A DNA stretch of 58,175 nucleotides from the NCBI GenBank assembly GCA_902604175.1, contig CACKXR010000004.1:1-58175 (forward strand), in the 5' to 3' direction. This document shows, piece after piece, positions 52,236 through 58,175 of this stretch. The position numbers and the translations under genes are program-made. Under the pieces are notes generated by a model. That model was not told the DNA's origin. It made no database searches and was given only the letters and a program-made list of their open reading frames with translations. The first letter of the stretch is position 1. Each line of letters opens with the position of its first letter. The stretch comes from an uncultured Pelagibacteraceae bacterium. GTDB taxonomy: Bacteria > Pseudomonadota > Alphaproteobacteria > Pelagibacterales > Pelagibacteraceae.

Positions 52236-53480
52236 TTATTTCATTGTTGGCATTACAAATTCCACATTTGAACGGATACCGGAAGGCCACCTAGATGTTA
52301 CTGTTTTAAGTTTTGTATAAAATTTTATTCCTTCCATACCGTGCATTGCACTATCTCCAAATAAAGATCTTTTCCAGCCTCCAAAACTATGAAAGGCCAT
52401 TGGCACTGGTATAGGAACATTAATACCAACCATACCTACCTGAATTTTGCTAGCGAATGTTCTTCCTGTATCTCCATCTCTAGTATAAATACTTACTCCA
52501 TTTCCGTATTCATGGTCATTAATTAATTTTGCAGCCTCTTCAAAATTTTTAACTCTTACAACTGATAATACTGGGCCAAATATTTCCTCTTTGTATATTC
52601 TCATATCTCTATTGACATGATCAAATAAACAACCACCAATATAAAATCCATTCTCATAACCTTGAAGTTTAAGATCTCTTCCATCAACAACTAGTTTAGC
52701 ACCCTCTTTAACACCTAAATCTACATATCCTCTAACTCTTTCTAGGTGTTCTTTTGTTACCAAAGGACCCATTTCAGATGCTTTATCCATTCCAGGACCA
52801 ACTTTTAAAGCTTCAGCTTTTTTAGATAATCTTGAAACGAGCTCATCTCCAATATCTCCAACAGCAACTGCAACTGATTGCGCCATACATCTTTCACCTG
52901 CAGAACCATAAGCTGCACCCATTAAACCATTAACTGCCCCATCTAAATCACAATCTGGCATTACTACCAAATGATTTTTAGCACCACCTAGTGCTTGAAC
53001 TCTCTTTTCATTTTTAGCTGAGTTTTCATAAATATATTTTGCAATTGGAGTTGAGCCAACAAAACTTACTGCTTTTATAACTGGGTTATCTAGTATTGCA
53101 TCTACAGTTTCTTTATCACCATTAACTACATTAAATACACCCTCGGGTAGACCTGCTTCTGCAAGCAATTGAGCTAACATAATAGAACATGAAGGATCCT
53201 TTTCAGATGGTTTTAAAATGAAAGTATTTCCACAAGAGATTGCTATTGGAAACATCCACATTGGAACCATGGCAGGAAAATTGAATGGAGTAATCCCTGC
53301 AACCACCCCTAAAGGCTGTCTCATTGACCAACTGTCAACATTTGTTCCAACATTTTCAGAAAACTCACCCTTTAATAAATGAGGTATTCCACAAGCAAAT
53401 TCAACAACCTCAAGTCCTCTTGTTAGAGAGCCTCTAGCATCCTCAAAAACTTTTCCATGTTTAGAAATTTTAGAATTTGC
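52236..53480 (-). pseudogene. mmsA: Methylmalonate-semialdehyde dehydrogenase, 5'-truncated
   Basis: The C-terminal three quarters of MmsA (CoA-acylating, valine/propionate catabolism) is intact: [26 protein letters not shown] and the catalytic Cys in [10 protein letters not shown]. Homology extends upstream of the first ATG (53324) through [18 protein letters not shown] to HGK at about 53459, then breaks off, with an in-frame TAG at 53481-53483. The 52 codons between that stop and Met contain no ATG, GTG or TTG. About 100 N-terminal residues of the roughly 500-aa family are missing. Beyond the break the DNA encodes a different gene on the other strand. This is a true deletion or an assembly join, not a point frameshift. 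Confidence 0.85.
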
Positions 53481-53937
53481 CTATAAATACTCAACTAGAA
53501 TAAAAAAATTAATTTTTGTAGGCGGTTCTTATAAAATGCCCGTTCACCCAGATTTAATAGAATTAGCAAAAAATGGTGACTCAGATGCTGTTAAATTAAT
53601 GATGAAGTGGGGGTACGAGGGGTCAAAAAAATTTATTGGTGGCAATCCAATTGAAAGGATAATTCAATCACCTAGAGATATTAGTGAAATATTGGCTGTT
53701 GATCTTATTGCTTGTAACAATTATTCTAACGGTAAAGAGGCGGCTAGTTCAATTAATTGTCCAAGCATGTTTATATTTGGTGCCCTTGATAAGATGGTTA
53801 ATATTCAAGTAGGAAAAAAATTTTCAAATCTGGTAAAAAATTCATCTACTCACATCTTCGAGGGTTGTGGTCATATGATTATGATTGAAAAAGCATTTGA
53901 AATGAGAGAAAAGGTCCTAGAATTTTTAAAAAAATGA
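53470..53937 (+). pseudogene. Alpha/beta hydrolase, C-terminal fragment
   Basis: The fragment reads [20 protein letters not shown], then the ATG at 53536 (MPVHPDLIELA), and ends with FGALDKMV (catalytic Asp) and GCGHMIMIEKA (catalytic His). This is the second half of an alpha/beta hydrolase. The half that would carry the nucleophile serine is missing. Homology-like sequence begins before the first ATG, at about 53470, where the mmsA remnant on the other strand also breaks off. Its stop overlaps the dmdA start (ATGA). An ORF of 133 aa could still be translated, but no activity is expected without the nucleophile. Confidence 0.8.
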
Positions 53938-55043
53938 AAAACTTTTCCATAGCAAAATCAAGAAGATTACGAAGTACTCCTTATACCGACAGAATAGAAG
54001 CCCATGGTGTAAGTAGTTACACAGTATATAATCACATGTTACTTCCAGCATCATTTAAATCGCTAGAAAGTGATTATCAACACTTAAAAAAATATGTACA
54101 AGTTTGGGATGTTGCAGCAGAAAGACAAGTTGAGATCTCTGGAAAAGACTCTTCAAAATTAGTTCAATTAATGACTTGTAGAGATTTATCTCAATCAAAA
54201 GTTGGAAAATGTTATTACGCTCCATTAATTGATAATGATGGACTTTTGGTGAATGACCCAATAATTAATAAACTTGCAGAGGACAAGTGGTGGTTATCTA
54301 TAGCTGATGCAGATGTAATATTTTTTGCAAAAGGACTTGCAGCTGGCAATAAATTTGAAGTTGAAATTAATGAACCAAATGTAAATATATTAGCTGTTCA
54401 AGGACCTTTGGCTGATGATTTAATGTCAAAAATATTCGGTGAAGAGATTAGAAAATTAAAATTTTTTAATTTTGATTATTTTAAATTAAAAGGTCACAAA
54501 TATTTTATTGCAAGGTCTGGATGGTCCAAGCAAGGTGGTTTTGAAGTTTATGTTGATAATGATATAGCAGGTCAGGATTTATATGATTATTTATTTGAAC
54601 AGGGAGATGAATTTAATGTTAAGCCAGGTTGCCCAAATTTAATAGAGAGAATTGAAGGTAATTTGTTATCTTATGGAAATGATTTTGACAATAGAGACAA
54701 TCCTTTTGAAGCAAATTTTGATAAATTTGTTCACTTAGACAGTAAAGTTAATTTTTTAGGTAAAGAAAAACTTAAAAAAATAAAAGAAAAAGGAATAACT
54801 AGAAAACTTATGGGTGTAAAAATTGATCATAATAAAATTGATATGTATTGTGAAAAGACTTTATTTGCTGATAACAAAGAAATAGTTGGATATGTTAGAT
54901 CAGCAACTTATTCACCCACATTTGATAAAGTTATTGGAATTGCAATGATTAATAAACCCTACTGGAATACAAAAAATCAGTTTAATATAGAAATAAATGA
55001 AAAAATATATGTGGGTACTGTTTGTGATTTACCCCTCATTTAA
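53934..55043 (+). CDS. dmdA: Dimethylsulfoniopropionate demethylase DmdA
   Basis: DmdA moves a methyl group from DMSP to tetrahydrofolate, giving methylmercaptopropionate and 5-methyl-THF. This supplies reduced sulfur and one-carbon units to SAR11 cells. The 369-aa GcvT-fold protein matches what I recall of the Pelagibacter enzyme: the start [14 protein letters not shown], then [37 protein letters not shown] and [15 protein letters not shown], with equal length. These segments distinguish it from ordinary GcvT. It overlaps the hydrolase fragment by 4 bases. Its normal promoter may lie in the deleted region upstream. Confidence 0.88.
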
Positions 55044-55064: not shown

Positions 55065-56075
55065 ATGAATATAGCAATTGTAGGTGCAACAGGAAATGTT
55101 GGTAGAAAAATTATTGAAATTTTAGAGAAAAAACAAATAAATGTTGAAAATCTTTTTTTAGTAGCTTCGAAAAAAAGCGAAGGAAAAAAAATTAATTTTA
55201 ATGGAAAAGAACATACGGTAGAGGATCTTGAAAAATTTGATTTTTCCTCTGTTAAAATTGCTTTTTTTGCAGCAGGTAGTGGAGTAGCTGAAAAATGGGC
55301 TCATGTTGCTGCTGAAAAAACTATTGTTATAGATAATTCAAAATATTTTAGAAAAGACCCTGATATCCCATTAATTGTTCCAGAAGTTAATCCAAAAAAA
55401 TTATCTGATGTAAAAAATAAAAATATTATCGCTAATGCTAATTGTTCAGTGATTCCAGTTGTTGTGGCTTTAAAACCTTTGCATGATTTGTATAATATAA
55501 ATCGTATAGTTGCATCTACATATCAGTCAGTGTCTGGAGCAGGTAAATCAGCTATGGATGAATTATTGTCTCAAACAGAGGATTACTTTCAAAATAAGGA
55601 AATAATTCCAAAAAATTTTACTAAACAAATCGCTTTTAATGCAATTCCTCATATTGATAGTTTTTTAGAAAATGGTTACACAAAAGAGGAACAAAAAACT
55701 ACAGACGAAATAAAAAAAATTTTAGATAAAAGAATTAAAGTAACCTCTACTTGTGTCAGAATACCAGTTCTAGTTTCACATTGTATTAGTACAAATGTTG
55801 AATTTAATAAAAAATGCGATTTAGATGAAATAAGAAACGTCCTATCCACCTCCCCTGGGTGTAATGTTATCGATGAACATCAGGACGGGGGTTACATAAC
55901 ACCAGTTGAGGCAGAGGATAAATTTGAAACTTTTATTTCAAGAATAAGATTGGATGAGTCTCAAGAAAATACAATAAATTTGTGGATCGTATCAGATAAT
56001 TTAGTAAAAGGGGCGGCATTGAATGCAGTACAAATTGCTGAGAGTTTGATTACAAATGATTTTTATGGAAAATAA
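55065..56075 (+). CDS. asd: Aspartate-semialdehyde dehydrogenase
   Basis: Asd makes aspartate semialdehyde for lysine, threonine, methionine and diaminopimelate. The 336-aa protein begins IAIVGATGNVGRKII, has FFAAGSGVAEKWA, IVPEVNP and the catalytic Cys127 in NANCSVIPVVVALKPLHD, then TYQSVSGAGK and a conserved histidine region near VSHCIS. A 21-bp gap follows dmdA. Its stop overlaps sdhC by 11 bases, so asd and the sdh genes are probably co-transcribed. Confidence 0.96.
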   Translation: MNIAIVGATGNVGRKIIEILEKKQINVENLFLVASKKSEGKKINFNGKEHTVEDLEKFDFSSVKIAFFAAGSGVAEKWAHVAAEKTIVIDNSKYFRKDPDIPLIVPEVNPKKLSDVKNKNIIANANCSVIPVVVALKPLHDLYNINRIVASTYQSVSGAGKSAMDELLSQTEDYFQNKEIIPKNFTKQIAFNAIPHIDSFLENGYTKEEQKTTDEIKKILDKRIKVTSTCVRIPVLVSHCISTNVEFNKKCDLDEIRNVLSTSPGCNVIDEHQDGGYITPVEAEDKFETFISRIRLDESQENTINLWIVSDNLVKGAALNAVQIAESLITNDFYGK

Positions 56076-56448
56076 AAAACCTTTGTCACCACATATACAG
56101 ATTTATAGATGGCATATTTCGTCTTTAGTATCCATATCACACCGTATAACTGGAATTATTAATATTATCGCTATTTCTTTTATTTGCTTGTGGTCCTCAC
56201 TACTTATTTTGGGTGAAAGTAATTATGATATGATAAATTTTTTTTTAAGTTCTATTTTTGGGAAATTTATTACATTAGGTATTGTTTGGTCATTTAGTTT
56301 TCAAATATTAAGTGAGATAAGACATCTTATTATGGATATGGGTTATGGATTTGAGTTAGAAACAACAAAATTTACTGGTCTATTAGTAATTTTTGGCTCT
56401 TTCATTTTAACTGTTACAATATACTTAATTGGTAATTTTTTTTTTTAA
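56065..56448 (+). CDS. sdhC: Succinate dehydrogenase cytochrome b556 subunit
   Basis: This is a membrane anchor of complex II. The start is taken as ATG 56065, giving the family start ENKKPLSPHIQIYRW; an ATG at 56056 adds three residues. The 127-aa protein has three helices. Ser23 and Arg27 in SISHRITG match the quinone-site Ser27/Arg31 of E. coli SdhC. IRHLIMDMGYGFE (His87) is the family signature. The residue at the E. coli heme-b ligand position (His84) is Gln80 here. The role is clear; whether heme binds is open. Confidence 0.93.
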   Translation: MENKKPLSPHIQIYRWHISSLVSISHRITGIINIIAISFICLWSSLLILGESNYDMINFFLSSIFGKFITLGIVWSFSFQILSEIRHLIMDMGYGFELETTKFTGLLVIFGSFILTVTIYLIGNFFF

Positions 56449-56449
56449 T

Positions 56450-56776
56450 ATGAACGTTTCAACAAAAAAGTGGATTTTTATAAAGATATCTTCAGCAATT
56501 CTAATTCCACTCATGCTGTGGTTTATAATAAATTTTGTATCTATTTATGATCAGTCATATTCAGAGGTGTTGAATTTCTTTACTAATAAATTAAATAAGT
56601 TTTTATTCAGTCTATTTATTATTTTTGCATTCTTTTTCTCTTCTTTAACTATAAGTGAGGTTTTTGAGGACTATATTAATAATGAAAAAACCAAAAATGT
56701 CGCAAACAGACTGCTATATATTTCTGCTATAAGCATTTCATTTTTAACAATAATAATTATATTTAATCTTAAATAA
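56450..56776 (+). CDS. sdhD: Succinate dehydrogenase membrane anchor subunit
   Basis: This is the second anchor of complex II. The start is ATG 56450, one base after the sdhC stop; the TTG at 56429 would overlap sdhC unnecessarily. The 108-aa protein has three helices and the EDY motif (Asp74, Tyr75) that contacts ubiquinone. In other SdhD proteins a heme-ligating His lies 11 residues before this Asp; here that position is Phe63, and no His exists anywhere in the protein. Divergent sequence is normal for SdhD. Identity rests on size, helices, EDY and position. It overlaps sdhA in TAATG. Confidence 0.85.
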
Positions 56777-58175
56777 TGAGTGCTTATAATATTATAGATC
56801 ACGAATATGACGTAGTTGTTCTTGGAGCAGGAGGATCGGGCCTAAGAGCTGCAGTTGGATTAAGTGAAGCAGGTTTAAAAACTGCGTGTATTTCAAAAGT
56901 TTTTCCTACAAGAAGTCATACGTCAGCTGCTCAAGGGGGTATTTCAGCTGCTTTAGGAAATATGGGTGAGGATGACTGGAGATGGCATATGTACGATACC
57001 GTAAAAGGTGCTGATTGGCTTGGGGATCAGGATAGCATTGAGTATTTATGCAAAGAAGCACCAAAGGCTGTTCTAGAATTAGAAAAATATGGAGTCCCTT
57101 TCAGCAGAACTGAAGAGGGTAAAATATACCAAAGACCATTTGGTGGAATGACAAAAAATTATGGAAATGGAATTGTTCAAAGAACTTGTGCGGCAGCAGA
57201 TAGAACAGGACATGCAATTTTACATACTCTTTATGGACAGGCCCTTAAACATAAAACAGAATTTTTTATAGAGTATTTTGCTTTAGATTTATTAATGAAA
57301 GATGGTGAATGCAAAGGATTAATAGCTTGGAATTTAAATGATGGAACAATACATAGGTTTAGAGCACATACAGTAATTATTGCAACAGGTGGATATGGTA
57401 AAGTATATTATTCTGCAACATCTGCACATACTTGTACTGGAGATGGAAATGCAATGGTGTTAAGGGCAGGTTTGCCCTTACAAGATATGGAATTTGTTCA
57501 ATTTCATCCGACAGGAATATATGGTCATGGTACGCTGATTTCGGAAGGTGTAAGAGGTGAAGGTGGATATTTAGTAAATTCAAAGGGTGAAAGATTCATG
57601 GAGAGATATGCACCAAATGCAAAAGATCTAGCATCAAGAGATGTGGTTAGTAGATCAATGTCTATAGAAATTAACGAAGGTAGAGGTGTAGGAAAAGAAC
57701 AAGATCACGTTCATTTACATTTAAGTCACTTAGATAAAAGTGTAATTGAAGATAGGTTGCCAGGTATTACTGAGGCAGCAAGATTATTTGCAAACGTAGA
57801 TGTAACTAAGGAGCCAATCCCAGTTGTTCCTACTGTACATTATAATATGGGTGGAATTCCGACTAACTATAAAGCAGAGGTTTTAACAGTTAATGGATCG
57901 CAGAAAACGGTACCAGGCTTGATGGCAATTGGAGAAGCGGCATGTGTATCAGTTCACGGAGCAAATAGACTTGGCTCCAATTCCCTAATTGATCTGGTTG
58001 TTTTCGGAAGAGCAGCAGCAAAAAGAGCGGCTGAGTTGATAAAACCAGGAACTCCACATGAGGAGATATCAAACTATGAAACTCAAAAATGTTTAGATAG
58101 ATTTGATAGACTTAGAAATTCCCAAGGAGAAAATAGTACTGCAGAACTAAGGCTTGCAATGCAAAAAACTATGCA
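56776..58175 (+). CDS. sdhA: Succinate dehydrogenase flavoprotein subunit (3' end outside window)
   Basis: This FAD subunit oxidises succinate to fumarate. The frame is open from the ATG at 56776 to the window end (466 full codons of about 600). Visible are the FAD loop [14 protein letters not shown], His48 in [13 protein letters not shown] (the covalent FAD site), [22 protein letters not shown] and [10 protein letters not shown]. The start overlaps the sdhD stop by one base. sdhB is expected just beyond the window. Confidence 0.97.

What the first reader, a model, noticed from the sequence alone, without database searches (positions are those of the whole stretch)
56065..56776. Complex II anchors lack both heme-b axial histidines
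Aligning IRHLIMD of SdhC with IRHMMMD of E. coli puts Gln80 where the heme ligand His84 should be. Aligning EDY of SdhD puts Phe63 where His71 should be, and this SdhD contains no histidine at all. Quinone-site residues (SdhC Ser23 and Arg27, SdhD Asp74 and Tyr75) are kept. Coordinated loss of both ligands with the quinone site retained suggests a heme-free succinate dehydrogenase. That could save iron in an iron-poor ocean. Ligand mutants of E. coli complex II are reported to keep activity, so this is plausible. I do not know whether it has been described for SAR11.
Basis: partly seen in the sequence, partly recalled or inferred. Interest (0 to 1): 0.74.

Follow-up and report, generated by a model that had tools for sequence, protein, structure and literature searches.

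The report
Heme-free complex II in SAR11 bacteria
The succinate-oxidising respiratory enzyme of SAR11 ocean bacteria appears to have lost its heme, apparently several times over, which offers a natural experiment on what that heme does.

Summary
Window SdhC has Gln80 and SdhD has Phe63 where E. coli has heme ligands His84 and His71; SdhD has no His. Quinone-site residues are kept, and the genome keeps ferrochelatase and a heme-copper oxidase.

This is the common state in the SAR11 records read. Of 157 with all positions readable, 94 lack both ligands, 44 lack one and 19 keep both (not a random sample). The SdhA+SdhB tree needs four changes; at least three losses stand if weakly supported nodes are doubted.

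A second mark travels with the loss: SdhC Gly88 is Gly in 19 of 19 SAR11 records with both ligands and 0 of 138 with a ligand missing (Glu, Cys, Ser, Asp). In heme-free yeast complex II a Glu at the symmetry-related SdhD position helps replace heme propionate contacts.

Best reading: a working class C succinate:quinone reductase that shed heme b, its pocket filled by larger or charged side chains. "Coordinated" loss is not right in detail: single-ligand relatives exist. Iron saving is untested. Heme absence is inferred, not measured.

The parts
56065..56448 (+). sdhC, succinate dehydrogenase cytochrome b556-type anchor, 127 aa
   Evidence: TIGR02970 118.8 bits, PF01127 93.9 bits; ATG at 56065
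56302..56304 (+). codon CAA, SdhC Gln80 = E. coli His84 (axial heme ligand)
56314..56316 (+). codon GAG, SdhC Glu84 = E. coli Gly88 (ligand + 4)
   Evidence: Gly in 19 of 19 SAR11 two-ligand records, 0 of 138 others
56140..56145 (+). SdhC His26-Arg27 = E. coli His30-Arg31, kept
56450..56776 (+). sdhD, membrane anchor, 108 aa, no histidine
   Evidence: TIGR02968 53.3 bits; AlphaFold model on E. coli SdhD Z 13.3; His count
56483..56485 (+). SdhD Lys12 = E. coli Arg20 (propionate-holding position), proposed partner of SdhC Glu84 (inference)
56636..56638 (+). SdhD Phe63 = E. coli His71 (axial heme ligand)
56648..56650 (+). SdhD Thr67 = E. coli Gly75
56669..56674 (+). SdhD Asp74-Tyr75 = E. coli Asp82-Tyr83, quinone site, kept
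56776..58175 (+). sdhA, flavoprotein, cut by the contig end; sdhB lies beyond the contig
   Evidence: TIGR01816 809.8 bits, cut-off 727.35; window is the whole contig G000:C4

Best explanation
The window encodes a working succinate:quinone oxidoreductase of the class C fold that no longer binds heme b. Electrons go from FAD through three Fe-S clusters to ubiquinone, as in other complex II, where the heme lies off that path. The structural job of the heme is taken over by protein: SdhC His84 became Gln and Gly88 became Glu, SdhD His71 became Phe or Tyr and Gly75 became Ser or Thr; these fill the pocket, and the new carboxylate probably pairs with a basic residue that used to hold a heme propionate. 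Shown: the substitutions, their clade-wide spread, repeated loss in SAR11 (at least three times, four on the best tree), the link with Gly88, the conserved quinone site, retained ferrochelatase and COX1. Inferred: that heme is absent, that the enzyme is active, and the salt bridge.
For: Ligand positions by sequence and, for SdhD, by model. 94 of 157 complete SAR11 records lack both ligands and 44 lack one. SdhC-88 is Gly in 19 of 19 SAR11 two-ligand records and 0 of 138 others; outside SAR11 in 121 of 122 two-ligand records. Tree and tests: intact/broken and Gly88/not each need 4 changes; f1 losses as one clade rejected, p-AU 6e-38. Quinone-site residues S27, R31, D82, Y83 unchanged in every row with a letter. 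Ferrochelatase and COX1 in 12 of 12 genomes. In 61 genomes PF01127 gives two matches or none, so no second SdhCD was seen. Precedents: yeast complex II is heme-free, with Arg97(Sdh3)-Glu112(Sdh4) among the contacts that replace the propionates (PMC13066397); a heme-free E. coli variant keeps significant activity and supports growth on succinate (PMC3290573).
Against: No spectrum or structure of a SAR11 complex II. SdhC His30/His91 and the basic SdhD-20, which touch the heme in E. coli, are kept, though R31 also serves the quinone site. Gly88 is not a perfect mark: G196 lost SdhC His84 yet keeps Gly88, and G106 keeps both His with Asp at both glycines. Only three independent pairs stand on supported branches, too few for significance. 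One-ligand E. coli mutants can retain heme (title of a 2001 paper seen in a reference list), so the one-ligand SAR11 groups are less certain.
Confidence: 0.82

Rival explanations
1. Heme b is still bound, weakly or with other ligands (SdhC His26 or His87, Gln80, or Tyr in relatives), held mostly by its propionates.
For: Propionate-holding positions SdhC R31, H91 and basic SdhD-20 are kept. A paper title in a reference list reports heme retention in axial-ligand mutants of E. coli. Ferrochelatase is kept.
Against: SdhD has no His; SdhC His26/His87 are ordinary conserved residues of two-ligand enzymes; Glu replaces Gly88 beside the lost ligand in 116 of 138 ligand-poor SAR11 records, the other 22 have Cys, Ser or Asp. 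Position SdhD-71 drifts among F, Y, N and H in the window's genus, which suggests that it is free of a ligand's constraint.
Confidence: 0.12
2. The anchor is degenerate: complex II is being lost or SdhCD serves only as a tether without quinone reduction.
For: Losses are in small genomes; 50 of 397 SAR11-order genomes had no SdhC match, 13 of the 151 that are at least 90% complete.
Against: Quinone-site residues are invariant; the operon passes curated cut-offs; 138 of 151 good genomes have SdhC. Missing matches may be assembly gaps; I did not test SdhA in them.
Confidence: 0.04
3. Motive, not exclusive with the best reading: loss was selected to save iron in iron-poor ocean.
For: HIMB114, a cultured strain, keeps both ligands, while the window's clade is ocean Pelagibacteraceae. 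Losses recur.
Against: Ecology is confounded with phylogeny and most genomes here are unnamed; HIMB114 is itself marine (recalled). One Fe of ten per enzyme (established cofactor content). The held text of a 2010 study of P. ubique under iron limitation has no hit for 'succinate' or 'sdh' (PMC2864753, passages).
Confidence: 0.25

Closest known systems
Saccharomyces cerevisiae complex II (PMC13066397; PDB 9qdl, 9qdm)
   Same: Class C anchor without heme b; a ligand His lost; a Glu four residues after the lost ligand position helps replace propionate contacts.
   Different: Yeast keeps the SdhC His and has Tyr in SdhD, with Glu in SdhD (Glu112). SAR11 Pelagibacter-like enzymes lack both, with Glu in SdhC. 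SAR11 shows several losses in bacteria.
E. coli SdhCDAB heme-free engineered variant (Tran 2007, not held; cited in PMC3290573)
   Same: Works without heme b.
   Different: Engineered, without the compensating substitutions seen here as far as I know (paper not read).
E. coli SdhCDAB wild type
   Same: Fold, quinone-site residues, His30, Arg31, His91, Asp82, Tyr83.
   Different: Two axial His and Gly88/Gly75, all four replaced in the window.
Tetrahymena and Perkinsus complex II (named in PMC13066397 introduction)
   Same: Reported to lack the heme.
   Different: Described there as divergent; I did not compare sequences.
Class D complex II (E. coli FrdABCD)
   Same: Two anchors, no membrane heme (PMC10238741, passages).
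   Different: Window anchors pass the SdhC and SdhD models; Fumarate_red_D is below its cut-off.

Membership tests
Class C succinate:quinone oxidoreductase | two membrane anchors of the SdhC and SdhD families with sdhA in one operon | tested here: met
Class C succinate:quinone oxidoreductase | quinone-site residues SdhC Ser27/Arg31, SdhD Asp82/Tyr83 | tested here: met
Class C succinate:quinone oxidoreductase | one axial ligand from each anchor for one b heme | tested here: not met
   Gln and Phe at the ligand positions
Class C succinate:quinone oxidoreductase | heme b bound | not testable with these tools
   needs spectrum or structure
Class C succinate:quinone oxidoreductase | SdhB with three Fe-S clusters | tested here: inconclusive
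   the contig ends inside sdhA; SdhB relatives were found in other SAR11 loci for the tree, clusters not checked one by one
Class D (FrdCD-type) complex II | FrdC/FrdD family anchors | tested here: not met
   Fumarate_red_D 16.2 and 15.9 bits, cut-off 25; no FrdC model listed
Heme-free class C enzyme as in yeast | loss of an axial ligand with replacement contacts between the anchors | tested here: inconclusive
   ligand loss met; the Glu84-Lys12 contact is inferred, no complex was modelled

The most novel reading that the evidence does not exclude
Heme b of complex II has been discarded again and again in small-genome Alphaproteobacteria: at least three times inside SAR11, and in up to four further families. 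The route is convergent: an acid or bulkier residue replaces one of two pseudo-symmetric glycines at ligand + 4, takes over propionate contacts and makes the axial ligands dispensable; yeast reached the mirror-image solution. If so, much of the ocean's bacterial succinate respiration runs on a heme-free complex II.
Probability: 0.55. Interest if true: 0.8.

Novelty: new variant of a known kind. Interest (0 to 1): 0.7.

Why it matters
What heme b does in complex II is an open question: it lies off the electron path, and an engineered heme-free E. coli enzyme still works. SAR11 offers related natural enzymes with two, one and no axial ligands, so the question can be tested by comparison. It also bears on heme and iron budgets of very abundant ocean bacteria, and on annotation: the family models still name these subunits cytochrome b556.

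Tried and rejected
Another His as axial ligand: not supported. SdhD has none; SdhC His26/His87 are the usual His30/His91.

Sequencing error or one odd genome: rejected by recurrence.

A second, heme-bearing SdhCD elsewhere: not seen in the incomplete own genome (70%) nor in any of 61 genomes scanned; G597 and G627 gave a second weak TIGR02970 match, which is their own SdhD.

General loss of heme: ferrochelatase and COX1 are present in 12 of 12 genomes; other heme genes were not searched.

One loss in all SAR11: f1 losses as one clade are rejected (p-AU 6e-38); f2 losses as one clade are not (p-AU 0.137); the test of all losses as one clade did not finish.

SdhD Gly75 as a second mark: in the pair test it does not follow ligand loss (0 of 3 pairs); it is replaced in the window's clade and in two-ligand genus g231, but kept in the other loss groups of SAR11.

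Print: seven searches listed no report of ligand loss in SAR11 complex II; several lists were capped, and only open-licence PMC text is held.

Dropped rows: 7 of 288 records lacked a readable position and are outside the counts: G397, G563, G618, G199, G122, G171, G275. The last three have SdhC Tyr; at a looser threshold G171 and G275 show SdhD His71 with Glu75, and SdhD of G122 was not aligned. Some records may be one assembly twice: L109 and G350 were merged; L096 and G015 share a contig length and were not.

Full report
What is there. The end of the window holds sdhC (56065-56448), sdhD (56450-56776) and the start of sdhA, cut by the contig end. The proteins pass the cut-offs of TIGR02970, TIGR02968 and TIGR01816. 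The window is from Pelagibacteraceae (SAR11): its SdhA is 98% identical to that of isolate AG-349-K23.

The ligands. In an alignment that carries E. coli K-12 SdhC and SdhD, window SdhC has Gln at His84 and Glu at Gly88; SdhD has Phe at His71 and Thr at Gly75. The SdhC register is anchored by S23, R27, H87 and D91, invariant among 63 sequences, and by the match to an avian PDB chain, ungapped here; the structural ranges for SdhC are one residue off. For SdhD the AlphaFold model superposes on E. coli SdhD with a constant offset of 8, so Phe63 is at 71.

Spread. I read four positions in 288 records, 281 complete. In SAR11 (157 complete): Q/F 77, Y/H 21, H/F 20, H/H 19, Q/Y 15, Q/H 2, Q/N 1, N/H 1, Y/N 1 (SdhC-84/SdhD-71). 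In the clade of the window's genus g1 with g229 and g230 none of 115 has both His. Two-ligand SAR11 records are of genera g5 (with HIMB114), g227, g228, g231 and g3, and named MAG L108. The records are not a random sample: the order search matched 347 of 397 genomes, and I read those fetched as loci. Outside SAR11 I have 128 records: 80 of a class search in which 234 of 289 genomes matched (30 best, 30 weak-scoring, 20 middle) and 48 named records, Gammaproteobacteria among them. Of these 122 are H/H, one is truncated and five have SdhC Tyr: G145, G196, G171, G275, G122, in four families with genomes of 1.2-2.0 Mb. All five come from the weak-scoring set.

A linked residue. SdhC-88 is Gly in 19 of 19 SAR11 H/H records and 0 of 138 ligand-poor ones (Glu 116, Cys 18, Ser 3, Asp 1); outside SAR11 in 121 of 122 H/H records. 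On the tree each character needs four changes; the three independent pairs on supported branches all agree, too few for significance. Against an absolute rule: G196 lost SdhC His84 but keeps Gly88, with Glu at SdhD-75; G106 keeps both His with Asp at both glycines.

History. The SdhA+SdhB tree (57 rows, 851 columns) parts SAR11 from the other Alphaproteobacteria (100/99). Losses fall in the g1+g229+g230 clade, in MAG MED817 (L110, sister to H/H genera g5+g228, 97/86, with H/H genus g227 outside, 98/96), and in family f2, where H/H genus g3 sits between the loss genera with weak support (84/20). The first clade is itself weak (68/55) against H/H genus g231, so there could also be more losses. 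Holding all f1 losses as one clade is rejected (p-AU 6e-38); holding the f2 losses together is not (p-AU 0.137). So at least three losses, four on the best tree. The replacing codons at SdhC-84 (CAA, CAG, TAT, AAT) are all one base from a His codon (SdhC part).

Function. Quinone-site residues are unchanged in every row with a letter. Ferrochelatase and COX1 are kept in 12 of 12 genomes. PF01127 gives two matches or none in each of 61 genomes. Literature: yeast complex II is heme-free; His156(Sdh3)-Tyr108(Sdh4) replaces the His-heme-His link, and Arg97(Sdh3)-Glu112(Sdh4) is among three contacts that replace those of the propionates (PMC13066397; passages and sections 4, 8, 13 read). In E. coli SdhC R31 and SdhD R20 hold the propionates from equivalent positions, and a heme-free variant keeps significant activity and supports growth on succinate (PMC3290573, passages). 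Yeast Glu112 is ligand + 4 in SdhD; SAR11 Glu84 is ligand + 4 in SdhC. By that symmetry its partner would be SdhD-20, Lys or Arg in 114 of 114 readable rows of the clade. The pairing is my inference: the residue is basic in most H/H enzymes too, and it is Gln in the one genome with Asp88.

What is not shown. Heme absence was not measured. The title of a 2001 paper reports heme retention in E. coli axial-ligand mutants (reference list), so one-ligand SAR11 groups are less certain than no-ligand ones. Iron saving is a guess.

Names. That G352 is HTCC1062, G012 HIMB5, G476 IMCC9063, G090 HIMB59, g1 Pelagibacter, g227 LD12-like, and that L108 is from Lake Tanganyika, is recalled.

Noticed in passing
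window 53250-53620: A methylmalonate-semialdehyde dehydrogenase gene (minus strand, matches TIGR01722 only from profile position 133) and a hydrolase-like fragment (plus strand, no NCBIfam match) both seem to lack their N-termini where they face each other; a deletion or an amplification/assembly chimera.
   Followed up: partly
window 53934-55043: Dimethylsulfoniopropionate demethylase (NF009133, 545.5 bits, cut-off 410), close upstream of aspartate-semialdehyde dehydrogenase and sdhC.
   Followed up: no
L335 (G106): A non-SAR11 alphaproteobacterium with both axial His but Asp at SdhC-88 and SdhD-75 and Gln at SdhC-91; perhaps a pocket altered before ligand loss.
   Followed up: no
L330-L334 (G171, G275, G145, G196, G122): Further alphaproteobacterial families with Tyr at SdhC-84, four of the five with Glu at SdhD-75, the position of yeast Glu112.
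   Followed up: partly
L260, L261 (G627, G396): Two genomes of the window's genus have Gln at SdhC-84 but His at SdhD-71; retained or regained His could not be told apart.
   Followed up: partly
G476 contig C1, 594829-596187 and 599285-600676: Two COX1-family genes close together in one two-ligand SAR11 genome; the other eleven genomes searched have one.
   Followed up: no
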